The notes beneath the pieces are model-generated. The model was not told the DNA's origin. It searched no databases and saw only the letters and a program-made list of their open reading frames with translations. Below are positions 3,612 through 22,659 of a stretch of 64,000 nucleotides of DNA, piece after piece (the first letter of the stretch is position 1; each line of letters begins with the position of its first letter). The stretch is from the NCBI RefSeq assembly GCF_002234405.1, contig NZ_NMQT01000112.1:1-64000 (forward strand), in the 5' to 3' direction. Source of the DNA: Amycolatopsis thailandensis. Lineage in GTDB: Bacteria; Actinomycetota; Actinomycetes; Mycobacteriales; Pseudonocardiaceae. Made by a program: the position numbers and the translations under genes.

Positions 3612-5417
3612 TCATTTCGGCAGATCGGTTTTGACGAGCAGGTCGAAGCCGAGGCCGCTGGAACCCTGGCCGCGGCCCTCGCCTCGCTGGGCGGACAGCC
3701 AGAGGGACACGCGGCCGTCTCGCCACCGGGTCCTGTTGTAGGCGACCGTCACCCGGGTACCCGACTGCGGGACCTCCTCCTCGTTGACGAAGTACCGCTG
3801 TCCCTCGTCGAATCCCACGCGTAACAAGCTGGTTCTCGGGCGGACCGGCTGTCCGTCGACGACGCTGGGCATCGCCGCGCGTTGGAGCTGGATCTCGCGG
3901 TTGTCGTTCGGGACGTGCACCGGGATGAAGGGGATCCAGTGTTCGGGAATGCCGCTCATCGCCCGGTAGGACAGGGCTGCCCGGGGCGGGTCGTCCGCCG
4001 TCGGCGGCGTGGTGGCGGGTGGGCGCCTGCGGTACGCCACCGTTTCCGCGGCCGCTTCGCTGCCCCGGCGGGGTTCGCCGGTCGGCATGCGGACGGTTTG
4101 TTCTATACCCCAGACCAGGTTGGCGTTTTCATCGCGGACAAGCAGGACTTCCTCCAGTACCGGGCCGACGGCCACCTTCGGCACACTCGGCGGCAGGAAC
4201 AGGTCGGTGTCGGCGGGCACGTCGTCGGTACCGATGGTGTCCAGGGTGAACATCGACCAACGCTGCCAGTCCTCGTCGGGGCCCGCGCCCGCCGGGGTCA
4301 GCCATTCCCGGTGATTGAAGACGTCCGTCACCGTCAGGCCGCGGATTCGCGCCACGGTGCCCGCGGGCAGGTCGCAAGGCAGCTGGTACCAGTCGTTGCT
4401 GAACACCAGCGCGAACTCGAGGAAGATCAACCTCGCCAGGTCGGTGCTGTCCGGACCCACCGCGGCGAAGTTCGTTTTCCCGTCCTCCAGCGCCCACCAT
4501 CGTGGTAGCGGCATTCCCGAATAGCGGACCGGTGCCGGGAAGACCGTTCTGGACAGCCGCGGCTCCGGTGGGCGGCCGCCGCCGAGTGGCGGGCCCGGAT
4601 TCACCGAGAACGCGTGCCAATCCAGCTCCCCGCCTGGGTATTCCCGGGCGGTCAGCACCTTCTCGGCCCCGTCCGGCATCGCCGCCGAGATCGAGAACCG
4701 ATGCTCCAGCCTGCGTGGATCCCAGGTGCCGTCACCGGCAGGCTGGTCGATCAGCCCGTCGAACCAGGTCACCAGCCGCTTGCCGGCGTCCACCAGCGCC
4801 GCGTGGTGCAGGAGCGGGATGGTCGTGATCCCCGCGTCCGCCACACCCCCACCCTTCAAGAAGACGTACAGCAGATAGCCGTCCATCCGGCGGCCTGCCA
4901 CCGCCTGCATGGTGGCCCACACACCCGGGTTCGCCCGCTGGGTGACAGCTTCCTTGGCGGGCAGGGCGATCGGGTACTTGTTCGCGTACTGCTCCTCGAA
5001 TTTGAACACTAGGTTGCCCAGCAGCCCGGCCTTGCCCAGCAGTTTGAACCAGCGACGGCCGATCGCCACCCGCAGGTCGAAGCCGATCTTCTCCGGACCG
5101 TAGGTGAACGGCACCTTGCGGCGTTCCGCCATCGTCTCCAGTGGACGGTCGGTCGGCAGGTCCTCGGGCGGACCGTCGAGAGGGCGGAACCGGCTCGGCC
5201 GTGACTGCGCCACGGAATAGGTCGCGGTCACCGGCGAACCGCCGTCGGTGCCCTGGAACTCGCCCAGTTGCCACTGCCTGGTCAGCATCCACAGTGGATC
5301 CCGGATCTCCGCCCGCAACGCGCGGGTGAAGTCGGTGGTTCGTGGCCTGCCTTCCAAGCGGTTCCACACTCCGACGGCGGGGGTGCGGCGGGCGGCCAGG
5401 TCGTCGGCGAAGGTCAT
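3612..5417 (-). CDS. 601-aa protein of unknown function, last structural gene of the giant-protein operon
   Basis: I recognise no characterised family. Residues roughly 38-66 hold a striking motif, RDPLWMLTRQWQLGEFQG followed by DGGSPV, that looks like a family signature. The middle is aromatic-rich, with a block near residues 300-400 (PLPRWWALEDGKTNF, FSNDWYQLPCDLPAG), and the C-terminal region is basic and proline-rich. There is no signal peptide or membrane helix. The ATG at 5417 overlaps the stop of the 1725-aa gene (ATGA), which indicates translational coupling and so a stoichiometric or functional partnership. The repeated Trp/Pro-rich strands would suit a beta-rich structural protein, but this is speculation. 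Confidence 0.8.
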   Translation of the reverse strand: MTFADDLAARRTPAVGVWNRLEGRPRTTDFTRALRAEIRDPLWMLTRQWQLGEFQGTDGGSPVTATYSVAQSRPSRFRPLDGPPEDLPTDRPLETMAERRKVPFTYGPEKIGFDLRVAIGRRWFKLLGKAGLLGNLVFKFEEQYANKYPIALPAKEAVTQRANPGVWATMQAVAGRRMDGYLLYVFLKGGGVADAGITTIPLLHHAALVDAGKRLVTWFDGLIDQPAGDGTWDPRRLEHRFSISAAMPDGAEKVLTAREYPGGELDWHAFSVNPGPPLGGGRPPEPRLSRTVFPAPVRYSGMPLPRWWALEDGKTNFAAVGPDSTDLARLIFLEFALVFSNDWYQLPCDLPAGTVARIRGLTVTDVFNHREWLTPAGAGPDEDWQRWSMFTLDTIGTDDVPADTDLFLPPSVPKVAVGPVLEEVLLVRDENANLVWGIEQTVRMPTGEPRRGSEAAAETVAYRRRPPATTPPTADDPPRAALSYRAMSGIPEHWIPFIPVHVPNDNREIQLQRAAMPSVVDGQPVRPRTSLLRVGFDEGQRYFVNEEEVPQSGTRVTVAYNRTRWRDGRVSLWLSAQRGEGRGQGSSGLGFDLLVKTDLPK

Positions 5418-8400
5418 CGGCGGGCCCTCCAGCGCTCGTTGGCTTGGGCCAGGTCGGTGCCGACGGTCATCTGCCGGGTCGCCGACATGATGGTCGCCGG
5501 GAGCAGGTGGGCCAGCGGCGTCTCACCGAGGTGCGCCGGCTCGACCGCCCGGATCTTCGCGAGGTCGAACGTCTCCACGACCGCGTCGAGCAGGTCGGTG
5601 GCCGACCATGACCCGTTCACGACCCGCGCCGGCGGCGCGACCAGCAGCATCGCCTGCGGTGGTTCCGCGTCCGGGCCGTCGTAGTGCACGGCCACCCCGG
5701 TGGTCTCGCGTTCGGCGGGGATCACCTCGGTCCACTCGTCGAGGACGAGCCCGCACTGGCGGTCGTTGTTCAGGCTGGTCGCGTAGTGGGCGGTGAACAG
5801 CAGGCGGTCTTCCTCCTTCAGCGGGTTCGGGCCCGGCGCGAACTCCAGGCCGAGCCAGTGGTCACCGGTGACATACGGCAACTGGATCGGCGACAGCTTG
5901 GGCTCCACCCAGCCGAGGATGCCGGTACCGAGCAGGCCACCCGGGCCGAGCAGCGCGTCCGAGAGCAGCACCGTTTGTTCCCACAGTCTCGGCTTGTCCC
6001 GTACCCTCGCCATCCCGTGCAGCCAGTCGTCGACCGGGAAGTCCCGTTTCGCGTTGAGGTGGGCGATGAGTTTGTCGCTGTCGGCGCGCGCCTTGCGCCA
6101 CTGCTGCATGACCGGCGCCGGTGGGGTGAACTCGGGCACCACCAGCACGTCCTCACCGAGCAGCGCCTTCAACGCGTCGGTGCCCGCGCGGACCCGGTCC
6201 GGACCGGTGGCGGCCTGGTCGTGACGCACGAGCGCGGCGGCCGCCACCGTGCGGCGAGCCGAGAGCTCGTCGGACAGTTTCCGTGCCCTGCTCAGGAGTT
6301 CCTGCCCGTACGCGACCACCTGGTCCTGGAACGGGATCAGGTCGACGCCGAGCGGATCGTAGTCAGCGGGAGGAAGGTTCCCCGCCACTTCGGTCAACAG
6401 TGCGCTCAACGTCGTCCTCGTGGTGCTGGCCTGTCGCTCCAGCGCCTTCACCTTGAACCCGAAGTCGTTGCGAAGGCCGCGGACCCGGGAACGCATCTGG
6501 AACGGGGTCGGCATCCGCGGTTGTGCCTTGGTGGTCAGCAGCCGCTCGGCCTTCTCCAGCAACGTGAACCGGTCCTCGTCCGGGGTCGAGCCGGGCAGGT
6601 CTTCGTACTGTGCCAGCAGCAGGTTCGCGGCGGTCAGCGCGGTGGTCATCCGCGCCGCCAGTTCAGCGACCGCTTCGAGCAGGTCGGCGAACACACCACG
6701 CCGCCACACCGTCAGCTCGCCCCATCCGCTGCGTGGCAGCCCGAACCCGGCCGACGCCGTGGCCAGCTTGGCGTACCGGGTGAGGAAGCCGTCGATGCCG
6801 TCGAGCACAGCCGCACGTGCCGGTTGCTGTCCTTTCGGGTAAAGCGCGCCGAGGTCGGTGACGAAGTCGGCCACGTCTTCGTCGACGAGGACGGTCAGCG
6901 ACGCCAGCACGGCCGCGGGCCGTTCCCGTGGCAAGGTCACGTCGTCGTCGGCCGCGCGGTTCACGGTTGTGCTCCCCGCGGCCGGGGTGAGGTCGCTCTG
7001 CCGCAGCGGCCGGGACGTGGTCATCAGTGTGCGCACGGCCGCGACCAGCGGGGACAGCTCGAAGAAGCTGACCTTGTTCGGCACCCGCTGGGTGTAGTCG
7101 ATGCTCAGCACCCGGTCCGGGCGCGGTTTCGCCCTTTCCGTGACCACGCCGATGATCCGGTCGTCCAGATCGGTCATCGCCGCCGCGTCGGCCGGGCGCA
7201 ACGCGAACAACAGGTCGATCGACGACAGGCCGGTCTCCTGCTGGGTCACGTCCCGGTGGTCGGGCGAGCCGTCCGGTTCGGTCCAGCTCACCCGGGCGAC
7301 GACGTTCTCCGGTTTCGGCAGGACCGCGGGCAGCCAGTCGTCGACGGCCGGTTCCGCCTGCGCCCTCGGCGGGTTGTGGCCGAGCAAAGGCGCGTTGTGG
7401 TCCGGGCCGAGACCGGGGGTGAACTGCACCGCCAGCCGATGAGTCAGGGTGGTGCCGCTGCGAGGTGTCTCGACGATCATCGGGGCGGGCGGCAATCCCT
7501 CCTTCGCGTAGGCGTCCAGCGCGGCGGAGGCGCGTTCGGTATTGCCCAGCAATGCCTGGTGGGTGCCCTCGGCGACAGACAGGTCGGCCACGGCGTCCTG
7601 GACGTTTCGCAGCGCTCGGATCTCCGCGCGGATGTCGAGGATCTGCTGTCCGGTGGCCGGCTTGAGGTCGTCGTATCCGAACGGATAGTCGTCGGCGTTT
7701 TCGGTCGTCGGGTGCGCTGCTCTCAGCTCGTTCGCGCGCCGTAGCAACTTCAGCCCGTCGATGACGTTGCGGGCCTCTACCTGTTCGATGCTCGTCGGCA
7801 CGGCAGGATCGTCCGGCGAAGGCTTGGTCTCCTCGATCTTGTTGGCACGTAACGGGAATCTCAGCCGCATCCCGGAGACGAGCGCGTCGAGGCCCGCCCG
7901 GCGGTCGTGCAGGCCGCGTTCGAACCGGTAGCCGAGCAACGCGGACAGGGACTGGCCCTGCCGCATCCCGTCGGCGATGGTCAGCGCGAGCCGGACCCGT
8001 TCGGAGCTGAGGTTCACGGCGAACACGTTTTCCTTGCCCCGGTCCGCGTTCGCGACGTAGCCGGCACGCAGTACCGCCGCCGTGCGGGCATGAGCGGGTG
8101 ACGGGGCGTGGATGTAGCCGCCGTTGTGGCTGTCCTGTGGGATCGGGTCGGTGCCGAACACGTCCGTGAGGTCGGCGGGGACGTTCACGGTCTTGACCGG
8201 CTCCGTATTCGGGTGGACGTGCTCCAGCCAGCCGTAGGCGCCGAGGTGCAGGCCGCGCGTCGCGGAGGGGCCGGAGCGCAGTTCGGCCAGCCGTTCGTTG
8301 ACCAGTCCGAGTCGCCACGCGTCCAGCCGGTAGGTCGCGCAGTCCACGTGCTCGGCGAACACCCGCTCGAGGCGCGCCGTCGGCAGTGTGGCCAGTATCT

Positions 8401-10591
8401 TGATCGCCTCGATCTGTTCCGTCTGTTCCCCGGTGGCGGGATGGCTGCCCATGATCGACCGGATGTGCTCGTGCACAGGACGATCCGGGGCGATGGCCGG
8501 GTCGGTCGAATACAGCGTGCGGTAGCGGCTCTCGCTCCGGTCCGCGGGGCCGATGTGCACGAACGGCGCGTCGCGGACGTCCGGTACGTCGGCGCCCGGT
8601 GTCGCCAGGGCGAGCCTGCGCGCGGTTTCGGCCCACCCCAGCAGGACAGCGTGCCGCGCGAGCGAGTACAGCACCGCGTCCGGCGGCAGGTCGTCGATGA
8701 ACCCCAGTTCTTCGCGGATCGTGTTCAGGTCGCTGGTCGCCAGCCAGGTCAGGTAGTCGCGTTTGTCGAGGGTGTAGGGCCGGATCGGTTTCGTCTCCGA
8801 CAGCGGCCGGTCGTCGACCACCGGCGCGAGCAGTGGATGCGCGTCGTCGGCGAACAGCCGTCGCAGCAGGTCCGGGTCGGTGTCCTGCGAGACGCCCAGC
8901 CTGGTGAGCGTCTCCCGCAACGGCGAGGTGAGCCGGTCCAGTTCCGCGTCCATCTCGGCCTGCCCGGCGATGGCCTCCGCGCTTTCCGCGTACCGGAAGC
9001 GGAATTCGGCCGAGGTCGGGTGCAGTGCGAGGATGTCGAGGAGCGTCTGGTGCCGATCGGCGCCCGGTTTGTCCAGGCTTGAGACGTGTTTCAGCGCGGT
9101 TCGCCAGTCGGCCGTGGCGGTCGCGAGTACGGCGTTGAGAGCCGTGCGATGCGGGGTGGTGGCCGGCCAGGCGAGCTTGGAGAACGCTGTCGTCGGCAGG
9201 ATCCCGTACGGCTGACGGCCGATCTTCACGGTGGGCAAGGGCCCCCGGCCGGACACGTTGGCGAGGAAGAACTCCCGGGTCTGCGCGATCTGTTCGCCGG
9301 TGAGGACGCCGTTCAGCAACGCGGGCAGGTAGTTCCCCCAGGTCGCGGGCCACAGTGCGGTGTGGGCGGCCCGCGCGTCACGCCGGTCGGTGCCTTTCGC
9401 GTTCGGCACACCGGCCAGCTTCGCCGGGTCGAGGCCGAGCAGTTCGGCGAACCACTCGCCGTCGGTCTTGGTACGCCAGTCCGGCGCGGCGGCCGTGAAG
9501 CCGGCGATGGTGGCGAGACCGGCTTCGGCTTCGGTCTTCCGGTCCTGACCGGCGGGGAGTTCCTCGGAGTTGTTGGTCGGCGTGCCCTGCGGCAGGAACG
9601 CGAATCCGGCGGGACTGTGCAGCTGGTCTTCGAGCAGCTTGCCGAACGCGGCCGCGCTGTCCTCCGGCGTCGCCTGCTCACGCAGCCCGAGCACGACAAG
9701 GCGATCGAGCCCGCCGGGGAAGTCCGCGGTGCGTTTGATCCGGATGCCCATGCCCACCCCGACGGCCTTGTCGAATTCGGTGAGCCACTCCAGCGCCGGC
9801 GGCACGAAGAGGGTGCCGTCCCGCTCGTTGATGCGCAGCTGGGTGGCCGGTGGTTCCTTCGGGTCCGGGCTGACCGCGAGGTCCTGCCGGACGGGCAGAC
9901 CGGGTTCCGCGAAAACCCGTCTGTCGCCGACGTACCCGAAGAAAGTGAACTTGTCGGGCAGCAAGGCCGCCTTCGCGGCCACGGTCCACGACTGTGGCGC
10001 GATCTTGTCGGCGGGCAGCGTCGGCAGCACGAGGAACGCCACGACGACGTTGTCCCCAGGCGTGTTCGGCGCACTGTCCACACCAGACGGACGGCGGCCT
10101 CGGATGGCGGCAGCCCGGTTCGCTCCCACGGCCGCCAGCAACGCGATCTCGGCGTCGCGCAGTTTCCCGCGGTCGCCGTGCGCCTTCCACACGGCCGTCC
10201 AGTACGTGGTGGTGGGAGTCCGGTCGGCCGCGGGGACCGGCTGCGGGCTCACCACCACGAGCACGGTCGTCCCGATCGGGACCCCCAATGGGCGTTCGGT
10301 CGGGTTGCCCGGTTCACGGCTCCGCACGAGCCAGCCCGCCCGGCCCGCCGGGATCCGCGCGACCAGTTGGTGCCAGGCCGCCTGCTCCCCCACCGGCTGC
10401 CCACCCGACGCCCACATGGCCGTCCAGTAAGCGTCCAGCGCCGAGACCTCGGCCTGTGTCGGCCGCGGCTCGAACTTGTTCACCGACCACTCGTCGGGGA
10501 ACACGCGAATCAGCAAATGCGTCGGCGTGAACCGGGTTTCCACCCGGACCGGGCCGAGCAGCACCGGGAAGTCAAGGCTGAGCGGGGTCAT
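5414..10591 (-). CDS. giant 1725-aa protein of unknown function
   Basis: An uninterrupted 5.2-kb gene, one of the longest in the window. No known catalytic domain is recognisable. Likely signature motifs are GPLPTVKIGRQPYGILPTT near residue 460, a helical block with VADLSVAEGTHQALLGN near residue 1010, then TPRSGTTLTHR near 1050. The first 130 residues (LLIRVFPDEW, DAYWTAMW) look like a distinct beta/alpha domain. There is a predicted helical or coiled-coil stretch around residues 1330-1500 and a C-terminal beta-rich end with LGLEFAPG and LVLDEWTE. No secretion signal. ATG at 10591 overlaps the upstream gene's stop by 20 bases. The open frame continues upstream to 10795, but that portion is the overlap with the 1035-aa gene in another frame and is rejected as N-terminus. 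Confidence 0.85.
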   Translation of the reverse strand: MTPLSLDFPVLLGPVRVETRFTPTHLLIRVFPDEWSVNKFEPRPTQAEVSALDAYWTAMWASGGQPVGEQAAWHQLVARIPAGRAGWLVRSREPGNPTERPLGVPIGTTVLVVVSPQPVPAADRTPTTTYWTAVWKAHGDRGKLRDAEIALLAAVGANRAAAIRGRRPSGVDSAPNTPGDNVVVAFLVLPTLPADKIAPQSWTVAAKAALLPDKFTFFGYVGDRRVFAEPGLPVRQDLAVSPDPKEPPATQLRINERDGTLFVPPALEWLTEFDKAVGVGMGIRIKRTADFPGGLDRLVVLGLREQATPEDSAAAFGKLLEDQLHSPAGFAFLPQGTPTNNSEELPAGQDRKTEAEAGLATIAGFTAAAPDWRTKTDGEWFAELLGLDPAKLAGVPNAKGTDRRDARAAHTALWPATWGNYLPALLNGVLTGEQIAQTREFFLANVSGRGPLPTVKIGRQPYGILPTTAFSKLAWPATTPHRTALNAVLATATADWRTALKHVSSLDKPGADRHQTLLDILALHPTSAEFRFRYAESAEAIAGQAEMDAELDRLTSPLRETLTRLGVSQDTDPDLLRRLFADDAHPLLAPVVDDRPLSETKPIRPYTLDKRDYLTWLATSDLNTIREELGFIDDLPPDAVLYSLARHAVLLGWAETARRLALATPGADVPDVRDAPFVHIGPADRSESRYRTLYSTDPAIAPDRPVHEHIRSIMGSHPATGEQTEQIEAIKILATLPTARLERVFAEHVDCATYRLDAWRLGLVNERLAELRSGPSATRGLHLGAYGWLEHVHPNTEPVKTVNVPADLTDVFGTDPIPQDSHNGGYIHAPSPAHARTAAVLRAGYVANADRGKENVFAVNLSSERVRLALTIADGMRQGQSLSALLGYRFERGLHDRRAGLDALVSGMRLRFPLRANKIEETKPSPDDPAVPTSIEQVEARNVIDGLKLLRRANELRAAHPTTENADDYPFGYDDLKPATGQQILDIRAEIRALRNVQDAVADLSVAEGTHQALLGNTERASAALDAYAKEGLPPAPMIVETPRSGTTLTHRLAVQFTPGLGPDHNAPLLGHNPPRAQAEPAVDDWLPAVLPKPENVVARVSWTEPDGSPDHRDVTQQETGLSSIDLLFALRPADAAAMTDLDDRIIGVVTERAKPRPDRVLSIDYTQRVPNKVSFFELSPLVAAVRTLMTTSRPLRQSDLTPAAGSTTVNRAADDDVTLPRERPAAVLASLTVLVDEDVADFVTDLGALYPKGQQPARAAVLDGIDGFLTRYAKLATASAGFGLPRSGWGELTVWRRGVFADLLEAVAELAARMTTALTAANLLLAQYEDLPGSTPDEDRFTLLEKAERLLTTKAQPRMPTPFQMRSRVRGLRNDFGFKVKALERQASTTRTTLSALLTEVAGNLPPADYDPLGVDLIPFQDQVVAYGQELLSRARKLSDELSARRTVAAAALVRHDQAATGPDRVRAGTDALKALLGEDVLVVPEFTPPAPVMQQWRKARADSDKLIAHLNAKRDFPVDDWLHGMARVRDKPRLWEQTVLLSDALLGPGGLLGTGILGWVEPKLSPIQLPYVTGDHWLGLEFAPGPNPLKEEDRLLFTAHYATSLNNDRQCGLVLDEWTEVIPAERETTGVAVHYDGPDAEPPQAMLLVAPPARVVNGSWSATDLLDAVVETFDLAKIRAVEPAHLGETPLAHLLPATIMSATRQMTVGTDLAQANERWRARR

Positions 10592-13679: not shown

Positions 13680-14818
13680 GCGCCGCTCCGTTCGGCCGAC
13701 GTGGTTAGCTCGACCGGTTTCTCCGCGGCCGCGAGCCCGGTCCTGGTGATGCCGCCCGCGACGAGCACCTTCGTGCCCGACGCCGCCGTCGAGAACGCCC
13801 ACCGGCCTTCGAGCAGCCCGGCATACGGGGTCCAGGCGCCGGCCGAGAACTGGAGCGCGCCGCGATATCCGGTCTCGTTGGCGGGGTGGTCGGAGCCACC
13901 CACCACCAGCACTTTCCCTTCGGCGATCGCGACCGCGCGGTGCGCCGCCCGGCCCGCCGGCATGGCGGCGACGTCGTGCCACGCTCCGGCGGCGAGGTCG
14001 TACACCTCGGCGGTGGCGCGGGCGAACGGGTCGAACCCCTCGGCGGTCGCTCCCGGCGCCCGGCCTCCGGCGATCAGGACGGTGGTGGCCGACAACGCGG
14101 TCGCGGTGTGCCCACTGCGTGGATGGCGCAGGCTGCCGGTCGGCTGCCACTTCGCGGTCGCCGTGTCGTACAGCTCGCAGAACGCCAGATCCGCGTCGTC
14201 GGCGGCACCGATCGGCACGCTTCCGCCACACACGAGCACCTTCGCGCCGCCCTGCAAACCGACCGCCGTATGGCCGGCGCGGGCGTCGGTCATGCCGTGC
14301 TCGACGGTGGTCCAGGTCCCGGCGACCGGGTCGAACACCTCGGCCGACCGCAAGGCCATCAGCCCGCCGCCGGGCCGGGCACCGATGCCGCCCGCGACGA
14401 GCACCTTCCCGTTCGAGAGCGGCACCGCGCTGTGCCCCCAGCGGCCGTCGGCCATGTTCTGCGCGACGTTCTGCCAGGAGTTCGCCTCCGGGTCGAACAC
14501 CTCGGCGGTGTTCAGCGGCGCCCCGGCAGGTCCGACCCGGCCGCCGGTGATCAGCGCTTTCCCGTTCGGCAGCGGCGTGAGCGTGTGGAGTTGCCGGGCG
14601 GCACCCAGCAGTGCGGTCGCCTTCCAGGTCCCGGCCGTCAGATCGAAGACGGCGCTCTGCCTCACGCTCACCCCCGCCGCGTCCGCGCCGCCGGCGACGA
14701 GGACCTTCGTGGCGTCTTTCAGCACGACGGCGGTGTCGTGCTGGCCGTGCCAGCGCGCGGCCACGGCGTACTGGGGAGCGGCCAACCACGCGTCGGCCGC
14801 GAGAATGACGGTGGTCAT
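13676..14818 (-). CDS. stand-alone six-bladed kelch-repeat protein
   Basis: 380 residues made almost wholly of kelch repeats, about 50-60 residues each, marked by glycine pairs (VLVAGG, LITGG, VLVAGG, VLVCGG, VLIAGG, VLVVGG, VLVAGG) and following EVFDP/ELYD-x-W elements. Six to seven such units would close a beta-propeller, usually a binding platform. The sequence closely parallels the C-terminal kelch half of the preceding DUF6603 protein (shared AFCELYD and RSGH/RKGH segments), so it probably arose by duplication. No signal peptide. ATG at 14818 has a ribosome site (GAGAGG) and lies 13 bases after the DUF6603 gene's stop. A longer in-frame opening upstream to 15367 overlaps that gene and is rejected. 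Confidence 0.88.
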   Translation of the reverse strand: MTTVILAADAWLAAPQYAVAARWHGQHDTAVVLKDATKVLVAGGADAAGVSVRQSAVFDLTAGTWKATALLGAARQLHTLTPLPNGKALITGGRVGPAGAPLNTAEVFDPEANSWQNVAQNMADGRWGHSAVPLSNGKVLVAGGIGARPGGGLMALRSAEVFDPVAGTWTTVEHGMTDARAGHTAVGLQGGAKVLVCGGSVPIGAADDADLAFCELYDTATAKWQPTGSLRHPRSGHTATALSATTVLIAGGRAPGATAEGFDPFARATAEVYDLAAGAWHDVAAMPAGRAAHRAVAIAEGKVLVVGGSDHPANETGYRGALQFSAGAWTPYAGLLEGRWAFSTAASGTKVLVAGGITRTGLAAAEKPVELTTSAERSGA

Positions 14819-14831
14819 CGAGGTTTTCCTC

Positions 14832-17800
14832 TCATGGCAGATAGATCTCGGCGGTGACGGCCAGTTCGGCCGCCGACGGCGCGGCGGGGCCGGACAGCGC
14901 CCGGCCGCCCACCACGAACACCCGGCCGTCGGCCAGGTCGAGTGCCGGGAAGTCCCAGCGCCCGGTGGTGAGGGCGCCGGTCGTCGTCCACGTGCCGGAC
15001 GTCGCGTCGAACAAGACGGCGTCCCGGTATCCGGCGACGGCGCGGGGTCTGCCGACGCCACCGACGACCACCGCGCCGTGCGGGGTCCGGACGCAGCGAT
15101 GCCCGCTGCGGCCGCCCCCCGGCAGATCCGCGACCCGTGTCCAGGCCCCGGTTTTCGGGTCGTACACCTCGGCCGACGCCAGGCTCTCGACCCGGTACGG
15201 GACAGTGGGCACGGCGTCGCCGCCGGTGACCAGCACCCGGCCGTCCGGCAGCAGCGTCGCTTGGTGGCCCTTGCGCGGGGTGAGCAGCTCGCCGGTCGCC
15301 GTCCACGTTCCTTCGGCCGGGTCGTACAGCTCGCAGAACGCGAGGGCCCGATCGCCGGTCGCGCCACCGACGACGAGCACCGCGCCGGTGTCCAGCGGTA
15401 CGGCGACGTGGCCGGTTCTGGCGTGATTCATCGGCGCGGCCGCGGTCCAGGCCGACCTGGCGGGATCGAACAGTTCGGCCGATGCCAGAGCCGCGCCCCG
15501 AACGCCTGTGCCACCGGCGACCAGCAGCTTGCCTGCCGCGAACGTGGCCGTGTGACCGGTCCGCGCCGCCGCGAGCCCACTCGCCGGGGTGGTCCAAGCG
15601 CCGGTCGCCGGGTCGAAGACCTCGGCCGACGCCAGCAGAGCACCGTCCGCACCGCGCCCGCCGGCCGCGACGACCCGGCCACCGGTCACCTTCGTGGTGG
15701 TGTGCCCGCGTCGTGCCACCGACAGCGCCGCGGTCCCGGTCGCCCAGGTCCGCGAGACCGGGTCGAACATCGACGTCGTGGCGACCGCCGTGGTGGTGGC
15801 GTCCGCGCCACCCGCCACGAGCACCGCGCCGCTGTTCAGCCGGACGGCTTCCGCCCCGGACACGGCGGCCGGTGGGGACCCGGCCGCTGACCACACGCCC
15901 GGTTCGGCAGGCACGCCGCTTGCCTCGGCCTGCCGCAAGACGTGCAGCTGCCCGGCGAGTGACGGATCCGCGAAGATCCAGGCCGCCATGGCGTCCTCGG
16001 CGGAAGCGGCGCTGCGGAAACTCGACGCGGTCCCGGGCGGGAACGCCTGGTGGTTGTTCCGCGAATAGGCGACCACGAACCGGTCACCGGTGACCTGCAC
16101 GGTGTCTTCGGCGGCGAACGGCTGCCGCCGCAGCGCCTCCTGCCGCGACAACGAGGACCGCGCGGTGCTGCTGTTCGCCAGGAGCTGGGTGAACACCGCG
16201 GGCGGTGGCCGGTACAGCTTCGGCCCGGTGCGGGCCACTCGCACGGCGAAACCCGCCGGAGGTTCCGACGGCGCCTCGTTGTCGATGATCGACATCTCGT
16301 AGCGGGCGCTGCGCCGCACCACCCTCGGTGACGCGAGCGCGCCGTCGGCGGCCACCAGTTCGAGCCCGGCGTCCTGGTGTTCGTAGGCGGGGCGGGACAG
16401 CTTCGCCGCGTCGTCCATGTCCTGGAACTGAGCCATGGCGAACTGGTCACCGGTCACCGACCGTCGCACCAGTCCGCTGCCGACCACGGGCGTGACGGTG
16501 AACTTTTTGCCGTCACTGGGCCGCTGCGCGCCGACCCGGTCGATCCGGACGTCGAGCGGAATGGCCCGCTGGTGGATGAACAGGCTGCCCAAGGGATGCA
16601 GCACGAGGTCGTCACCCGGGTCGAGCTGCCGCAACGTCACCAGCGCGTCGGCCCCGCCCGCGGGGAGCCGGGTCTGCCAGCCGTCGAGCTTGCGGATCTC
16701 CCCCTCCAGCAACGCGAGCACGGCGACGGGCGGCAGCGTGGTGGTGCGTTCCTCGCCCCACGTGATGTCGAAGTCGGCGGAGATCTCGAAGAACAGCAAC
16801 GAAATCGAACCGCGACCGCGCGCCTGCCACGGCGCGGGGCCCGACAACTGGAAGTACAGGTCGATGCTGAAGAACCCGACTCCGAACGCCTGCAGCGACA
16901 CCCCCGCCGAGATCTCCACGACGAACGAGAACGGGGAGAACCGGAACAGCGCGTCGAAGCTGAGGTGCCCCTCGATACCGAAGCCGCCGAACCCCAGCCT
17001 CAGCTCGGCTTTCGCGCCGAACTGGACGGTGTTGCTGGTGACCGCGAAATAGCCGGACACCCGGATGAGGCGGCCGGGCATGTTGATGATGTCGACCGAC
17101 AGCCGCGGCGGCACCGGGAACGGCAGCGGTGGCGGGGTGAACGCGGGGTGGAACCCGCCGACGGACAACACGAAGTTCGGGTTGTCGCTCCAGTCGACGA
17201 GCAGGCCCATGCCGCCGTCGATGGTCATGGTGAGGATGCGGGAGTCGAACAGCTTCGCGAAGAACCACAGCCGTGACCGGTCGACCTGCAACGCGCCGAT
17301 GAAATCGACCCGCAGCACCAGGAGCGGCAGGTCCTTGCTGGGCAGGATGCACTCCAGCACGCCGAGAATCGCGATGTTGCCCGGCGGGATCTCGACGATC
17401 ACCCCGAGCGAAACGCTGACCAGCGTCGGCGTGCCCCAGCCGATCTTCGCCATCGGCCCGACGAGGAACCTGTCGTTCTCCGGCGGGAAGAACTTCCGCA
17501 GATCGCTGATGATCCTCGGCGCGTTCGCCACCACGTCCTTCGGGAACATCACCGACTCGATCGACCCGCTGACCACGCCCTCGAGCAGCGCGTCGAAGTC
17601 CATCCGCCGGTTCAGCCCGAGGATGCCGCCGACCCCCAGCAGGGTGAACCCGAACCCGAGCTGGATACCCGACCCGAATTCCGCGGTGAGCACGATCAAC
17701 AACGAGAACCCGGCCGTGCCGTCCGGCATTCTGGTCGTGATCAGGCCGATCGCCTTGACCTCGATGAAACCGGCGAACATCAGCTCCAGCGCGCCCGCGT

Positions 17801-19370
17801 ACTCACCGCGTTCCGGGTCGAAGTACAGGAAACCGCCGCCCGCGACGATGCCGGCGTCGATCGACAGGCCGACGCCGGTCGGCGGCTTGAACCCGAACGC
17901 GACGTCGACCGGGCCGAGGTTGCCGCCACCCTCGGGAAAGCTCACGTCGGCGGTCAAGCCCACTCGTTCGACGGCCGCCGTCAGCGGGCCGAGGGCGGCG
18001 GTGAGGTTCGCGGACAGTTCGACCGGCACGCCGTCCGGGCCCGGCGTCGCGATGACCTGAAGTGCGTGCACGTCGACCGGGCCGATCCGCAGATGCACCG
18101 GAAGCTGCACCCTGAGCCCGGCGCCGCCGTGGAACCGCAGCCCGTGCTCCGGGTCGAACGCGAAGCCGGTGGCGAACCCCGCCTCCAGGCTCGCGCCGCC
18201 GAAAAGGGTCTTGATGAACCCGTCGGCGGATTCGGCGTCGATCACCAGTTTGCCGCCGGTCAGGTCACCCTGGATGCTGGGTACACCGGTCACCTGGCCG
18301 TCGGCGAAGGCCAGTGTGAGACCGGCTTTCAGTTCGAGGCCGCCGATTTCGAGTCTGCTGCCGCCCGCGACACCCAGCAGCAGCATCGGTTCCGGCGGGG
18401 TGGCCCGGATCGACACCTCACCGCGCAGTTCCGCGGCGCCGTCCGGTGGTTTCAGCGTCAGCCGGAACGGGGGCCGCAGTGAACCGGTGGTCCCGGCGGG
18501 CAGCAGGCCCGAGGCCTTGAGTTCGGCGATCCAGTGTGGTGCGACGATTTCGACCGACTTGCTCGCCTCGACACCGATCGGCATGACGACGCTGATCGCG
18601 AGTCCGTCGCCGTCGACGGTGAGGTCGACCGCCCAGGCCTCCAGCCGGGCGGGCTGTCCACCTGCCGCGGGCACGAACAGCACGGGCAGCCGCGCCGCTT
18701 CGAGAAGATCCCTCAGCGCCTTCAGCAGCTTCTCTCCGTCCAGAACCGGGCCTCCCCAGCCGAAACGCTTACCCAGCTGACCGATCGGGTCGACCAGGAA
18801 CGACGGCAGCTGATCCAGGCGCAGCCGGACTCGCTGGTGATCGATGCTCGCCGGATTCGCCGGATCGGCGTCGAGCCTGGTCACCTCCGCCAGGCCGAAC
18901 AATCCGAACAGGCCGGTCAGCCGGTGGGCCGGATCAACGATGTGCAGGATGGCCAGGTCGAGAAGCTTTCGAGGCAGGTCGGCCACCAGATCGGCGACCT
19001 GCTGCGCGGGAACACCGGGCAGGGTCGGGCCGACCGTGCCGATGGCCGTGCCCAGCGCCAGGTAGCTCTGCCCGATCTGACCGCAGCGGGTCAGCACTTC
19101 CGCGCTCCGCGCGACGATCTCGGCCGTGTTGCCCGAGGCGATCGCGGACTCCAGCGCGGCAGCGGCGGGGGCCATCGTCTTCGTCACCGTGGCGACGGAG
19201 TCCTGCGCGGCCCGCACCTGCGCGTTCGTCACCAACGCGGGCGGGAACACGGTACCCAGCTCGGCCAGCAGGTCCAGCAGCCGCTCGCCGACCATCCGGT
19301 CGCCGAGCGCGGCGATCGCCCTGGCGAGTTCGAGTGCCAGCTGTTCCACCGTGCCCGCTCTGTCCGCCAT
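14832..19370 (-). CDS. DUF6603-type protein with C-terminal kelch propeller (1512 aa)
   Basis: Residues about 1-250 are helical and low in features. The central region, about residues 480-900, consists of glycine/aromatic beta strands (for example PPENDRFLVGPMAKIGWGTP near 630 and FDALFRFSPFSFVVEI near 810) that I recognise as the DUF6603 domain, a family of unknown function found in bacteria and fungi. A linker region with FAMAQFQDMDD near 980 follows. From about residue 1157 onward there are six kelch units (VLVAGG, VVAAGG, LLVAGG, VLVVGG, VLVTGG, VVVGG). No secretion signal. ATG at 19370 is 6 bases after the upstream protease gene's stop. The fusion of DUF6603 with a propeller next to a free propeller is notable. 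Confidence 0.8.
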   Translation of the reverse strand: MADRAGTVEQLALELARAIAALGDRMVGERLLDLLAELGTVFPPALVTNAQVRAAQDSVATVTKTMAPAAAALESAIASGNTAEIVARSAEVLTRCGQIGQSYLALGTAIGTVGPTLPGVPAQQVADLVADLPRKLLDLAILHIVDPAHRLTGLFGLFGLAEVTRLDADPANPASIDHQRVRLRLDQLPSFLVDPIGQLGKRFGWGGPVLDGEKLLKALRDLLEAARLPVLFVPAAGGQPARLEAWAVDLTVDGDGLAISVVMPIGVEASKSVEIVAPHWIAELKASGLLPAGTTGSLRPPFRLTLKPPDGAAELRGEVSIRATPPEPMLLLGVAGGSRLEIGGLELKAGLTLAFADGQVTGVPSIQGDLTGGKLVIDAESADGFIKTLFGGASLEAGFATGFAFDPEHGLRFHGGAGLRVQLPVHLRIGPVDVHALQVIATPGPDGVPVELSANLTAALGPLTAAVERVGLTADVSFPEGGGNLGPVDVAFGFKPPTGVGLSIDAGIVAGGGFLYFDPERGEYAGALELMFAGFIEVKAIGLITTRMPDGTAGFSLLIVLTAEFGSGIQLGFGFTLLGVGGILGLNRRMDFDALLEGVVSGSIESVMFPKDVVANAPRIISDLRKFFPPENDRFLVGPMAKIGWGTPTLVSVSLGVIVEIPPGNIAILGVLECILPSKDLPLLVLRVDFIGALQVDRSRLWFFAKLFDSRILTMTIDGGMGLLVDWSDNPNFVLSVGGFHPAFTPPPLPFPVPPRLSVDIINMPGRLIRVSGYFAVTSNTVQFGAKAELRLGFGGFGIEGHLSFDALFRFSPFSFVVEISAGVSLQAFGVGFFSIDLYFQLSGPAPWQARGRGSISLLFFEISADFDITWGEERTTTLPPVAVLALLEGEIRKLDGWQTRLPAGGADALVTLRQLDPGDDLVLHPLGSLFIHQRAIPLDVRIDRVGAQRPSDGKKFTVTPVVGSGLVRRSVTGDQFAMAQFQDMDDAAKLSRPAYEHQDAGLELVAADGALASPRVVRRSARYEMSIIDNEAPSEPPAGFAVRVARTGPKLYRPPPAVFTQLLANSSTARSSLSRQEALRRQPFAAEDTVQVTGDRFVVAYSRNNHQAFPPGTASSFRSAASAEDAMAAWIFADPSLAGQLHVLRQAEASGVPAEPGVWSAAGSPPAAVSGAEAVRLNSGAVLVAGGADATTTAVATTSMFDPVSRTWATGTAALSVARRGHTTTKVTGGRVVAAGGRGADGALLASAEVFDPATGAWTTPASGLAAARTGHTATFAAGKLLVAGGTGVRGAALASAELFDPARSAWTAAAPMNHARTGHVAVPLDTGAVLVVGGATGDRALAFCELYDPAEGTWTATGELLTPRKGHQATLLPDGRVLVTGGDAVPTVPYRVESLASAEVYDPKTGAWTRVADLPGGGRSGHRCVRTPHGAVVVGGVGRPRAVAGYRDAVLFDATSGTWTTTGALTTGRWDFPALDLADGRVFVVGGRALSGPAAPSAAELAVTAEIYLP

Positions 19371-19376
19371 GGATGC

Positions 19377-20987
19377 TCACACCCTTGTCGCGTCGAAGGT
19401 GGCGAGGATTCGCGGATAGCTCAAGCCCGCCAGCTCGGGTAGCCGAGGAACCAGGTCGTCGAGCGCCGCCCGTAGCCCGTCGCTGCCCCGGCGGGCGAGG
19501 ACGGCGTGCATCCGCGTGACGCAGTCCGCCAGCGGCTCGTCGTTGACCGTGACGGGAAGCCGGGCACCCGCGTCGACGTCCGGCAGCCTGCCGAGGTGCT
19601 GGTAGACGGCCGAAGCGCCACTGCGGTGCCAGGTGGCGATCACCTGCCTGTCGTGGTTGACCAGGTTCACGAGTTCGGCGCCGTGCCGTTCCCAGAACAC
19701 GACCAGCTCCCGCCCGAACGGGCTGGCGGACAGGTCGTCCCGCACCCGGACGCCGATCTCGGTAGGCCGCGGCGGCGTGTCCTGGCTCGCCACGGCGGCG
19801 GCGCTCGGCATCCTCACCGGGACCTCTTCGCCGTCGAACAACGCGGTCAGGTTGGCAGGCACGGTCCGGATGTCCGCCGGGCTGGTGGCCAGCACCGGCG
19901 TGACGTTGTACTTGGGAGTCACATTGTCGCGGAGCTGGATCATGATCGCGTTGAGGGGCGCCACAAGCGTTCCGTTCACCTTCCCCGGTGTCTCGGGGAA
20001 GAACTCCTTGGCTTCGAACTCCGCCACGCCCGTCACGATGCCCATAGCCCGGACGTCGGGGGTCACCACGGCGGCGCCGGAGTCCCCTGGGATGCCGAAG
20101 TACACCGCGTCCGGTGGCGTGCCAGGAGGAATGTGCGGCACCACGATGAACTGCACGACCTGCCCGGCGGCGGGATTGCGGACGAAGTCGACGATCCTGC
20201 CCCCGGTCTTTCCCGTTCTGTTCCCGTACTTGCGGACGAGATAACTGTCGTCGCGGTATTGCGCTTCTGTGGGGTTCGGCGCGATTCCCTTGATGGGAAG
20301 GTGATCCTTGATGCCGCCGAAGTATTTCGTGCCCGGCCGGAGCCGGACCAGTGCGATGTCCCGCCAGCTGTGCGGGACGAAGTCGCCCTGCCAGAACTCA
20401 CCGTACCCGTCGTTACAGCAGTGCGACGAGGAGCAGTCCCCGTTCGGGTCCACTTGTCCGACAACGGTTTTCTCCCGCACCGGGGCCTCGATGACCTCCT
20501 GCTTGCTTTCGATCCCGGCGAGTTTGCACAGGGAGTGGAAACAGGTCAGCGCGTAGATCTTCTTGCCAGGAGCAGCGACGTCCTCCATGAGGAGTCCGAT
20601 GCTGCCTCGGCTCTGGTCGTCGATCCGGCCGGTGATCGGCCCGCCACCCGCCAGTACCTCGTCCGCGAGTTGCATGTCGACGTCGGGGGGCGGCTCTCGT
20701 TTACCCAGTGGCTCGCCCGGCGCGGGCTGCGGCAGGACCGCGTACCGCCGGTTGGTCATGGCGACGACGTTCGTCGGATAACCCTCCATAGTGGACGGAA
20801 CGCGCTCGTCGGGCGCCACCTCGGCGAACGGCAGCTTGCGGTCGACATACACCTGGATGGCCAGAAACCCTTGATTGACACCACCTGCGCGCTTCGCTCC
20901 GCCGCCGACGGCGTGCACGCCTGGAATGCGGAGCAACGTCTTCTCGGCCCGCCGGACGGCGGCGTGGAACTCGGAGTCAGTGTCCAT
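19377..20987 (-). CDS. trypsin-like serine protease, second of tandem pair
   Basis: 536 residues. The chymotrypsin-fold catalytic triad is visible as His151 (LTCFHSL), Asp210 (WRDIALV) and Ser303 (GIPGDSGAAV). The N-terminal ~80 residues (GVHAVGGGAKR, VYVDRKLPF) match those of the upstream paralogue and resemble the leader domain of Nal1-like proteases. A cysteine cluster (CSSSHCC, 185-191) lies between His and Asp. After the protease domain, residues about 430-536 form an extra domain (FWERHGAELVNLV, ATWHRSGASAVYQHL) shared with the paralogue. No signal peptide, so it probably acts in the cytosol or in a non-Sec-exported particle. Its ATG lies 11 bases inside the upstream gene, indicating translational coupling. 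Confidence 0.82.
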   Translation of the reverse strand: MDTDSEFHAAVRRAEKTLLRIPGVHAVGGGAKRAGGVNQGFLAIQVYVDRKLPFAEVAPDERVPSTMEGYPTNVVAMTNRRYAVLPQPAPGEPLGKREPPPDVDMQLADEVLAGGGPITGRIDDQSRGSIGLLMEDVAAPGKKIYALTCFHSLCKLAGIESKQEVIEAPVREKTVVGQVDPNGDCSSSHCCNDGYGEFWQGDFVPHSWRDIALVRLRPGTKYFGGIKDHLPIKGIAPNPTEAQYRDDSYLVRKYGNRTGKTGGRIVDFVRNPAAGQVVQFIVVPHIPPGTPPDAVYFGIPGDSGAAVVTPDVRAMGIVTGVAEFEAKEFFPETPGKVNGTLVAPLNAIMIQLRDNVTPKYNVTPVLATSPADIRTVPANLTALFDGEEVPVRMPSAAAVASQDTPPRPTEIGVRVRDDLSASPFGRELVVFWERHGAELVNLVNHDRQVIATWHRSGASAVYQHLGRLPDVDAGARLPVTVNDEPLADCVTRMHAVLARRGSDGLRAALDDLVPRLPELAGLSYPRILATFDATRV

Positions 20988-22659
20988 GCCGCACCTGTGC
21001 TTCGGCCGCCGGACGAGACAGAGCGGCGATGAGCTCGGGATACGTCGATCCGGCCAGATCGGGAAGTCTTCGCCGCAGTCGGTCCAGCGCCGTCCGCAAC
21101 TGCTCCCCCGCCGCCGCACGCAGGGCGTCGTACAGCCTGTCGAGGCACTGACGCAAAGGCTGACCGTTGACCGTCGCCGGGATGGTGAACGTTTGGTCGC
21201 TCAGCCCACGCAACAGCACCTGGTAGACCGCCGACGCACCGCTGCGATGCCACGCCGTGGCGACCCGCCGGTCGGCGTTCACCAGACGCCGTAGTTCCGG
21301 CGCGTAAGCCCGCCAGAAGTCCAAAAGTTCGCGCCCACCGGGCGTTTCCGCGAGGTCAGCGGCGAGTCGGCCCGCACCCGGCGGTGCCGCTCCCACCACG
21401 GTTGCCACCGCGGCGGGAGCCGGAACGGGGACGACCACCCGCTCGCCGTCGACGACGGTGGTGACCGTCGGCCTGCCCGGTACGGTATGCGTCTGCCCCG
21501 GCTCGGTCGCGGTGCCGACGGTCAGGTCGAGCCCGAGGCCGGCGAGCTTGTTCAACACCGTGGCGATCGGGAAGGCCACGCCGAAGTACGTGCGTTCCGG
21601 TGGATTCGTCAAGGGCGGTTTGATCACCCCGGCGAGCGCGCGGCCGAAGTTGAGGCCCAGCACACGGTTCGAGGTGTCCACGGTGACCGATCCGGAGTCG
21701 CCCTCCGCCAGGTAGTGGTTGTGCTCGTCGGCGGGCACCTGCGGATTCGGATGCGGGGCGATCACCAGCGCGTCGCGCGCCCATACCCGCGTGGCGCCAC
21801 CGTCCGGCGGCGGGCCCGGGAAGAGGATCTCGCAGTGCGCGGCGATGACGAACCCACCGGTGAACCCGGTCCGCGCACCACGTTTACGGACGAAGTAGCT
21901 GCGTGCTGCGAGTTGCTGATCGGTCGGAGGCGGCGCGATTCCCGTCACGGCGACGTCGTCGTCCCCGGGATCCTCCCCGGCGGCCACACTGGAGCGGCGC
22001 AGGTCGTAGCGATAGCTGGTGCCGCCGTCCAGCCGAGCCACCGCCGCGTCCCAGTCCGCGTTCTCCGCACCGCCCGCGTAGCGGCCGAAGATTCCCTCCG
22101 CGCACGTCGAGTGGGTCTTCAGGTCGTTCTGCCCGCACACTGTCGTGCCGACGACGGGCCCGTGTGCCACCGTGAGGTCGTAAACCTGGCCCTTGTCGTT
22201 GTACCGCGGATCGACCTGGGAAAGAACATGGTGACATGTGAGGGCATAAACCTGGTTCGGGTCCTGCGTGGCGCGCAGGAGGCACCCGAGAGTGCCGACG
22301 TTGCCCTCCATGAGGCTGCCCCGCATGGCCATCCCGCCGGTGATCGGCCGGTGCCGCTTGTTGTCCACAAAGGTCTCGTCATCCTTCGGGTACACGGTGC
22401 CGATCGGCTCGACCGCCGGCCGGGGATCGCTTAGCACCAGCACATCCGTCGGCACCCCACCGACGTCGGCGGGCACCAAGTCGGCGGCGTCGAGCGCGGC
22501 TCGAGGCAGTTTCTCCCGGACGAAGACCGTGACGGCGACCTGTCCGGTCGGCTGCCCGTCGACGATCTTCGCGCCGACACCGACACCGGTTATACCCGGT
22601 CGCCCGAGGAATTCCCCCGCCACCCGATGACGCAGATTTCGCATTTCCTCGGAAGCCAC
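20977..22659 (-). CDS. trypsin-like serine protease, first gene of the giant-protein operon
   Basis: 560 residues from the GTG at 22659, chosen because GGAGGG lies 6 bases upstream; an upstream TTG/ATG extension to 22722 has no such site. Residues 15-75 are an N-terminal domain (GITGVGVGAKIVDG, VTVFVREKLP). The triad is His143 or His144 (TCHHVL), Asp202 or Asp204 (ADWDAAV) and Ser322 (EGDSGSV), so the enzyme should be active. Residues about 455-560 form the same C-terminal domain as the downstream paralogue (FWRAYAPELRRLV, TAWHRSGASAVYQ). As first gene of the operon it probably sets expression. The 270 bases upstream, up to the remnant at 22930, show no promoter I can call with confidence. 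Confidence 0.82.
   Translation of the reverse strand: MASEEMRNLRHRVAGEFLGRPGITGVGVGAKIVDGQPTGQVAVTVFVREKLPRAALDAADLVPADVGGVPTDVLVLSDPRPAVEPIGTVYPKDDETFVDNKRHRPITGGMAMRGSLMEGNVGTLGCLLRATQDPNQVYALTCHHVLSQVDPRYNDKGQVYDLTVAHGPVVGTTVCGQNDLKTHSTCAEGIFGRYAGGAENADWDAAVARLDGGTSYRYDLRRSSVAAGEDPGDDDVAVTGIAPPPTDQQLAARSYFVRKRGARTGFTGGFVIAAHCEILFPGPPPDGGATRVWARDALVIAPHPNPQVPADEHNHYLAEGDSGSVTVDTSNRVLGLNFGRALAGVIKPPLTNPPERTYFGVAFPIATVLNKLAGLGLDLTVGTATEPGQTHTVPGRPTVTTVVDGERVVVPVPAPAAVATVVGAAPPGAGRLAADLAETPGGRELLDFWRAYAPELRRLVNADRRVATAWHRSGASAVYQVLLRGLSDQTFTIPATVNGQPLRQCLDRLYDALRAAAGEQLRTALDRLRRRLPDLAGSTYPELIAALSRPAAEAQVRHGH

What the first reader, a model, noticed from the sequence alone, without database searches (positions are those of the whole stretch)
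3612..22659. Seven-gene coupled operon encoding proteases, DUF6603, kelch propellers and three large unknown proteins
Seven genes (560, 536, 1512, 380, 1035, 1725 and 601 aa) are linked by overlaps or gaps of 13 bases or less, indicating one stoichiometric system. None of the three large proteins shows a known domain, yet each carries sharp signature motifs. The pairing of propellers (binding platforms), a beta-rich DUF6603 protein and two protease paralogues suggests a self-processed assembly or surface/particle structure. No sheath, tube, baseplate, NRPS or PKS gene is present, so it is not an obvious known machine. Which step the proteases act on, and whether the products leave the cell, is unknown.
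Basis: partly seen in the sequence, partly recalled or inferred. Interest (0 to 1): 0.88.

Follow-up and report, generated by a model that had tools for sequence, protein, structure and literature searches.

The report
Four-protein scaffold with swappable enzymes
Bacteria and some archaea share an undescribed set of four large proteins, encoded side by side, that is paired from species to species with very different enzymes, as if one molecular platform were loaded with interchangeable tools.

Summary
In detail: seven genes on the minus strand, 3612-22659, are linked by overlaps or gaps of at most 13 bases. Four of them, DUF6603 (D3), U5, U6 and U7, are a conserved core. U5-U6-U7 keeps its order in 68 of 69 testable loci, over seven bacterial phyla, and occurs in haloarchaea. 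In 198 actinobacterial genomes U7 and DUF6603 occur in the same 4; in 120 of the family, all 10 U7 genomes have DUF6603. U5, U6, U7 match no Pfam or NCBIfam family. The two proteases are one choice among many. The gene before DUF6603 may be a trypsin-like protease, subtilase, M64 or M14 metallopeptidase, phospholipase D, PhoD-like or galactose-oxidase-like enzyme, exchanged even between close cores. Trypsin-like and subtilase versions share a ~90-residue C-terminal domain (CTD), nearly confined to this locus: 7 of 29 DUF6603 genomes against 1 of 486 others. Best reading: a multi-protein scaffold carrying a swappable, in part CTD-docked enzyme. Self-processing is unlikely, because several partners are not proteases. 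No binding is shown, and whether it acts inside the cell or after release is unknown.

The parts
20977..22659 (-). P1, trypsin-like (NAL1-type) protease, 560 aa
   Evidence: NAL1_N E 0.002 (below cut-off); His and GDSG motifs present
21055..21354 (-). CTD of P1: ~90-residue C-terminal domain shared with subtilases of other loci
19377..20987 (-). P2, paralogue of P1 (33% identity), 536 aa
19431..19733 (-). CTD of P2
14832..19370 (-). D3, core protein: probably helical N-terminus (weak matches only), DUF6603, C-terminal kelch propeller
16407..18098 (-). DUF6603 domain; strongest amphipathic-beta signal (z 4.7) of the eight segments of D3, U5, U6 and U7 tested
13676..14818 (-). K4, kelch propeller protein, 380 aa (accessory)
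10572..13679 (-). U5, core protein, 1035 aa; N-half related to protein B of other DUF6603 operons; no confident PDB fold match
5414..10591 (-). U6, core protein, 1725 aa; region about 1290-1505 weakly resembles helical bundles
3612..5417 (-). U7, core protein, 601 aa; segments 12-59 and 300-325 are conserved but not folded in the model
2727..3608 (-). AraC-family regulator 3 bases downstream; a relative follows U7 only in L052, so probably not part of the system

Best explanation
The operon encodes a multi-protein scaffold (DUF6603 protein D3, U5, U6, U7) that carries an interchangeable enzyme encoded, as a rule, just before it. Shown by sequence: the core genes form one co-inherited unit; the enzyme slot is exchanged between unrelated catalytic families; trypsin-like and subtilase partners share a C-terminal domain (CTD) that is nearly confined to this locus; none of the seven window proteins has a signal-peptide-like N-terminus by a crude test. 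Inferred: the core proteins bind each other; the CTD docks the enzyme on the core; the conserved but unfolded stretches of U7 are inter-subunit surfaces; propellers (kelch, WD40) give recognition; the enzyme is the working end of a conflict (antagonism or defence) device. I lean towards an assembly that acts outside the cell after lysis or release (about 0.4), because galactose-oxidase-like, PhoD-like, peptidoglycan-binding, FG-GAP and lamin-tail parts are common in extracellular proteins (recalled). An intracellular immune role remains open.
For: Order U5-U6-U7 in 68 of 69 loci. U7 and DUF6603 in the same 4 of 198 genomes; DUF6603 in 10 of 10 U7 genomes of 120 and in 41 of 41 further U7 genomes. 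Core genes diverge together (pairwise identities r 0.92-0.96, 34 loci). Enzyme slot by class in 53 loci: trypsin-like 17, M64 10, subtilase 7, His/RGC-motif family 5, PhoD-like 4, PLD 2, M14 1, galactose-oxidase-like 1, WD40 1, unknown 3, none upstream 2. At least 19 class changes on the U7 tree of 40 loci (shuffled mean 22.4, 7 of 300 shuffles as low): only weakly tied to descent. Trypsin-like and subtilase profiles align over the CTD (hhalign 99.3%, E 4.6e-20, 113 columns). CTD in 7 of 29 DUF6603 genomes against 1 of 486 without (p 7e-9; 5 of 27 and p 2e-6 without the two centre genomes). In 41 core genomes 33 of 34 CTD hits lie beside the core. U7 segments with pLDDT under 50 are more conserved than the rest (0.74 against 0.55; 8 of 601 circular shifts as high).
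Against: No physical interaction is shown. The CTD was not found in M64, PhoD-like, PLD and His/RGC partners, so CTD docking is not the general rule. One CTD protein lies in a genome without a DUF6603 match (G386) and one on another contig than the core (G356). Two of 53 loci have no enzyme directly upstream (L160, L162), although CTD proteases lie downstream of U7. U7 also occurs without U5 and U6: a partial one in L053 and a full one on the Streptomyces anthocyanicus plasmid L082. Type II and III DUF6603 operons lack detectable U6 and U7. Genes after U7 are not conserved in the loci held (a crude gene call), so no export, lysis or immunity gene is seen with the core. Four slot proteins (L132, L135, L155, L164) pass the crude N-terminal hydrophobicity filter, and stretches in P1 and D3 reach 1.7 on the Kyte-Doolittle scale.
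Confidence: 0.6

Rival explanations
1. Intracellular immune (anti-phage or anti-plasmid) system: the core senses infection and releases the enzyme to kill or arrest the cell.
For: Patchy distribution (4 of 198 genomes), plasmid carriage (14 plasmid records), swappable proteases and phospholipase like the effectors of known immune systems (PMC12799240, passages seen), no signal peptide in the window proteins by a crude test.
Against: No PADLOC match for the seven window proteins; no NTPase, nuclease or nucleotide-signal domain in the operon by Pfam; partners such as galactose-oxidase-like or carboxypeptidase are unusual for this role (recalled).
Confidence: 0.22
2. Self-processing assembly: the proteases mature the core proteins.
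For: Two proteases with catalytic motifs in the operon here; proteases of several catalytic types fill the slot in at least 35 of 53 loci.
Against: The slot also holds PLD, PhoD-like and galactose-oxidase-like genes, and close cores use different proteases: L011 (M64) and L012 (trypsin-like) share 74-86% identity in U5, U6, U7.
Confidence: 0.1
3. Nutritional enzyme-display complex (cellulosome-like in logic): the scaffold presents degradative enzymes at the cell surface.
For: Partner enzymes belong to degradative classes; lamin-tail, FG-GAP and peptidoglycan-binding parts in some versions.
Against: No signal-peptide-like N-terminus in the window proteins (crude test); usually one enzyme class per locus; no dockerin or cohesin match in the window proteins.
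Confidence: 0.15
4. Unrelated genes kept together by shared mobility, with no common function.
For: Some copies lie on plasmids or near transposase and integrase genes.
Against: Fixed order over distant phyla and correlated divergence of the core genes.
Confidence: 0.03

Closest known systems
DUF6603 (PF20248)
   Same: D3 is a clear member (434 bits).
   Different: The family has no stated function in Pfam's name, and no paper of the library holds the word DUF6603.
Umbrella toxin particles of Streptomyces (PMC11062931; passages seen)
   Same: Multi-protein complex of actinobacteria that includes trypsin-like domains and variable parts.
   Different: There the trypsin-like domains link lectins to an ALF-repeat ring and the toxin domain varies; no ALF-repeat match here. 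Here the variable part is a whole enzyme gene, and the core reaches archaea and Bacteroidota.
Extracellular contractile injection systems
   Same: Large cytoplasm-made proteins with variable cargo (recalled).
   Different: No sheath match in the operon or the genome; U5, U6, U7 match no PHROG tail family.
Modular bacterial conflict systems (PMC7159879) and nuclease-protease pairs (PMC12799240); passages seen
   Same: A constant core with exchangeable protease or other effectors.
   Different: Those described have an NTPase or nuclease partner; none was found in this operon by Pfam.
Plant NAL1-type proteases
   Same: P1 and P2 match NAL1_N weakly and keep trypsin-like motifs.
   Different: P1 and P2 carry the CTD and lie in this operon.

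Membership tests
DUF6603 (PF20248) | Profile match over the curated cut-off | tested here: met
   434.2 bits against 27
Contractile injection system | Sheath protein (PF04984) | tested here: not met
   No match in the window's genome (96.8% complete); 3 of 14 control genomes ring
Contractile injection system | Tail-type structural proteins in the locus | tested here: not met
   No PHROG tail match for the seven proteins. D3 and K4 do match a PHROG called virion structural protein (phrog_16120, E 9e-12 and 4e-11) over their kelch parts, and U5 a coat protein at E 0.1
Umbrella toxin particle | ALF-repeat ring protein | tested here: not met
   No such Pfam match in the seven proteins
Known anti-phage defence systems (PADLOC 2.0) | Match to a model of a system protein | tested here: not met
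   0 of 7 window proteins; of two slot proteins of other loci, the subtilase of L129 matches the model 'subtilase'
NTP-dependent conflict systems | MoxR, STAND or other NTPase in the operon | tested here: not met
   No such Pfam match in the seven proteins
NAL1-type protease | NAL1_N / Nal1_C profile over cut-off | tested here: inconclusive
   P1: E 0.002 and 0.22, P2: NAL1_N E 0.21, all below cut-off; the relative in L151 passes Nal1_C
Trypsin-like serine protease | His/Asp/Ser triad | tested here: inconclusive
   His and GDSG motifs found in P1 and P2, the Asp picked by eye; no structure made; Pfam trypsin models do not reach E 1 for P1 or P2
Any fold in the PDB (U5, U7) | Confident fold match | tested here: inconclusive
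Physical complex | Core proteins and enzyme bind each other | not testable with these tools
   Needs co-purification

The most novel reading that the evidence does not exclude
A new class of protein particle, found in bacteria and archaea, built from four proteins with no relation found to phage tails or other known assemblies. It is loaded with one exchangeable enzyme through a dedicated docking domain (the CTD, and other docks for the other enzyme classes) and is used against competitors or invaders. The amphipathic beta-rich DUF6603 protein would form the membrane- or lipid-contacting part.
Probability: 0.3. Interest if true: 0.93.

Novelty: categorically new. Interest (0 to 1): 0.82.

Why it matters
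A four-gene unit kept in order across bacteria and archaea, with three very large families that match nothing in Pfam, NCBIfam or (by profile) the PDB, is rare. The swap of enzymes of unrelated families in one slot, and the portable CTD that two of these families share, make a clear and cheap prediction: the CTD is an address tag. If true, it opens a new kind of enzyme-carrying assembly and possibly a tool for loading enzymes onto a protein scaffold.

Tried and rejected
Phage or virus origin: thought unlikely. One 4-kb contig with a partial match in IMG/VR (a scan with two peptide patterns) and one unverified fecal record among phages; no confident BFVD fold match for U5.

A common dock for all slot enzymes: not found. 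By profile, M64, PhoD-like, PLD and His/RGC families share nothing detectable with each other or with the CTD. BLAST showed a few short cross-class matches that I did not follow: M64 L115 with unknown L089 (E 8e-5), PhoD-like L116 with subtilase L141 (85 columns, E 5e-6), His/RGC L158 with unknown L161 (E 1e-6), and subtilase/trypsin-like alignments that sometimes begin before the CTD.

Caspase-like nature of the His/RGC family: motif inference only; no PDB match. In the first tree count the slot proteins L144, L146 and L161 had been labelled caspase-like or alpha/beta hydrolase on weak grounds (at least 21 changes, 43 rows; shuffled mean 25.0, lowest 22 of 300 shuffles). I dropped those three rows and recounted (19 changes, 40 rows; lowest shuffle 19, 7 of 300 as low). 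The tree held 43 of 45 labelled loci (L091 and L093 had no U7 sequence in the file); eight core loci (L108, L109, L112-L114, L116, L119, L120) were classed but not put in the tree.

Protein C of type II operons as a U6 relative: the weak C-terminal signal did not survive more sequences.

Crude gene calling for GC-rich loci gave antisense artefacts and was replaced.

Literature: no paper with DUF6603. Searches for bacterial NAL1-type proteases, injection-system effectors with kelch, mixed domain lists and exchangeable effectors showed nothing on this system in the listings (at most 10 rows each). I saw only passages of three papers. The library lacks most subscription journals and all preprints.
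Full report
What is there. Seven reading frames on the minus strand are linked by overlaps or gaps of at most 13 bases: P1, P2, D3, K4, U5, U6, U7. D3 holds DUF6603 (434 bits, cut-off 27) and kelch repeats; K4 is a kelch propeller; U5, U6 and U7 match no Pfam or NCBIfam family. P1 and P2 are trypsin-like paralogues with His and GDSG motifs.

The core is DUF6603-U5-U6-U7. A scan of the species-genome collection with U7 gave 149 confirmed loci, of which the best 80 were kept. Eleven of these 80 were left out of the order count because little or no upstream sequence is held. Of the 69 others, 68 keep U5-U6-U7 in order, the exception being the partial U7 of L053. The tail of the DUF6603 gene was seen in 52 of 69 within the stretch held, and K4 in 32. 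Whole-genome search found DUF6603 in 41 of 41 of the U7 genomes submitted, among them 11 of the 16 intact loci without a visible DUF6603 tail. The loci belong to Actinomycetota, Bacteroidota, Pseudomonadota, Chloroflexota, Cyanobacteriota, Myxococcota and Gemmatimonadota. Plasmids of haloarchaea carry the same order, in L087 with U5 and U6 in pieces (L083, L087, L089, L094).

Genome samples. In 198 genomes of the phylum U7 occurs in 4 and DUF6603 in the same 4 (p 8e-7 without the window's own genome). In 120 genomes of the family U7 occurs in 10 and DUF6603 in 15, including all 10; one genome has two copies of each, paired. Pairwise identities of U5, U6 and U7 over 34 loci correlate at 0.92-0.96. 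The core is thus one sparsely distributed, co-inherited unit.

Other DUF6603 operons. Five DUF6603 genomes of the family have no U7 match (L121-L125). They hold DUF6603 followed by proteins B (about 725 aa), C (about 1200 aa, split in L123) and a smaller one. B is a remote relative of the N-half of U5 (pairwise hhalign 94.7%, E 6e-8, 251 columns). C shows no relation to U6. A third form (L170-L172) has B split in two and a C relative. So DUF6603 plus a U5-like protein may be the older common denominator.

The enzyme slot. The gene just before DUF6603 was classed in 53 loci: the window, 12 of the 13 core loci (L117, cut short by its contig end, was left out), and the 40. Classes come from Pfam, sequence similarity and motifs: trypsin-like 17, M64 10, subtilase 7, His/RGC family 5, PhoD-like 4, PLD 2, M14 1, galactose-oxidase-like 1, WD40 1, unknown 3, none upstream 2. 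Some are weak: M64 in L108 and L115 and PhoD in L116 and L119 are below Pfam's cut-off; L131 (M64), L114 (subtilase) and L165 (PhoD-like) are classed by similarity to classed relatives. The two loci without (L160, L162) have CTD proteases downstream of U7. Eleven plasmid loci are told apart: PhoD-like or its relative 2, trypsin-like 2, unknown or uncertain 4, none 3; L082 (no DUF6603 seen) and L095 (no U7 seen) were left out. Close cores differ in the slot: window and L002 trypsin-like, L003 subtilase (U7 of the window 81% identical to both); L011 M64, L012 trypsin-like (U7 86%). On a U7 tree of 40 loci and 8 classes at least 19 changes are needed, against a shuffled mean of 22.4 with 7 of 300 shuffles as low: the class follows descent, but only weakly.

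The CTD. Trypsin-like and subtilase partners share a C-terminal domain of about 90 residues with a WHR-type motif. Iterated search found it in 40 of 147 proteins of the upstream gene chains, one of them a fragment of P2 itself and three of them free-standing proteins of about 130 residues in L150, L155 and L156. The best profile alignment of the subtilase and trypsin-like families is this region (99.3%, E 4.6e-20); M64, PhoD-like, PLD and His/RGC families show no match to it. In three genome samples it occurs in 7 of 29 genomes with DUF6603 (family 5 of 15, phylum without own 0 of 3, Bacteroidota 2 of 11) and in 1 of 486 without (p 7e-9). Two of the seven, the window's genome and G349, are the centres of the samples; without them it is 5 of 27, p 2e-6. 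The search scored only part of its first-look candidates in many genomes, so misses are possible. In 41 core genomes 21 have it, with 34 hits, 33 beside the core and 1 on another contig. The genome without DUF6603 (G386) has a trypsin-like CTD gene a few kilobases from integrase-like genes (integrase by eye).

Place in the cell. None of the seven window proteins shows a signal-peptide-like N-terminus by a crude hydrophobicity test, though stretches inside P1 and D3 reach 1.7 on the Kyte-Doolittle scale. Of 97 upstream-chain proteins of 350 aa or more, 7 pass the N-terminal filter, four of them slot proteins: in L132, L135 and L155 it is an internal stretch of the protease, in L164 (PhoD-like) it is the very N-terminus. 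Core proteins of other loci were not tested. Some versions carry parts common on outer surfaces: lamin tail domains on U7 in two haloarchaea, an FG-GAP repeat on one Streptomyces U5, peptidoglycan-binding domains on two slot proteins. These signs pull in opposite directions, and I do not consider the site of action settled.

Structure. AlphaFold models of U7 (pLDDT 79) and U5 (82) have no confident match in the PDB, nor U5 in BFVD. In U7 the two segments that do not fold in the model (12-59, 300-325) are more conserved than the rest (0.74 against 0.55; 8 of 601 circular shifts as high), as one expects of a surface that folds on a partner. DUF6603 has the strongest alternating-hydrophobicity signal of the eight segments tested (z 4.7), consistent with long amphipathic strands.

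Interpretation. The proteases are probably not makers of the assembly but one of several loads. I commit to a scaffold with a swappable enzyme, docked by the CTD in the trypsin-like and subtilase versions, used in conflict between cells or against invaders. Shown: the unit, the swapping, the CTD and its near restriction to the locus. Inferred: docking, assembly, target, place of action. Umbrella particles, injection systems and conflict systems work in a similar modular way, but a defining feature of each was tested and not met.

Noticed in passing
L121-L125, L166-L172: Second and third kinds of DUF6603 operon with a U5-like protein B and a different large protein C. Four type II loci (L121, L123-L125) have no same-strand gene within 300 bases upstream of DUF6603.
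   Followed up: partly
L170:763-2367, L171:13503-15056: Class 3 lipase, and a weak metallo-beta-lactamase-superfamily match, directly before DUF6603 genes of type III.
   Followed up: partly
L175:9380-10792: Orphan trypsin-like CTD protein in a Bacteroidota genome without a DUF6603 match, a few kilobases from integrase-like genes.
   Followed up: partly
L082:19962-21767: Full-length U7 without the other core genes on a Streptomyces anthocyanicus plasmid, a few kilobases from IS5 transposases.
   Followed up: no
L092:30-9958: A record named Bacteriophage sp. (unverified, human fecal sample) carries the core genes; probably bacterial DNA.
   Followed up: no
window 2727-3608: AraC-family regulator with DUF6597, 3 bases after U7; a 27% identical relative follows U7 in L052.
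   Followed up: partly
window 1146-1961: Protein that looks like an ESX-type EspG family member (recalled, no search made).
   Followed up: no
L139, L145, L148, L158, L159 (upstream of DUF6603): Slot protein family of 660-864 aa with invariant His and an IDIRGC-type motif; possibly a cysteine protease.
   Followed up: partly
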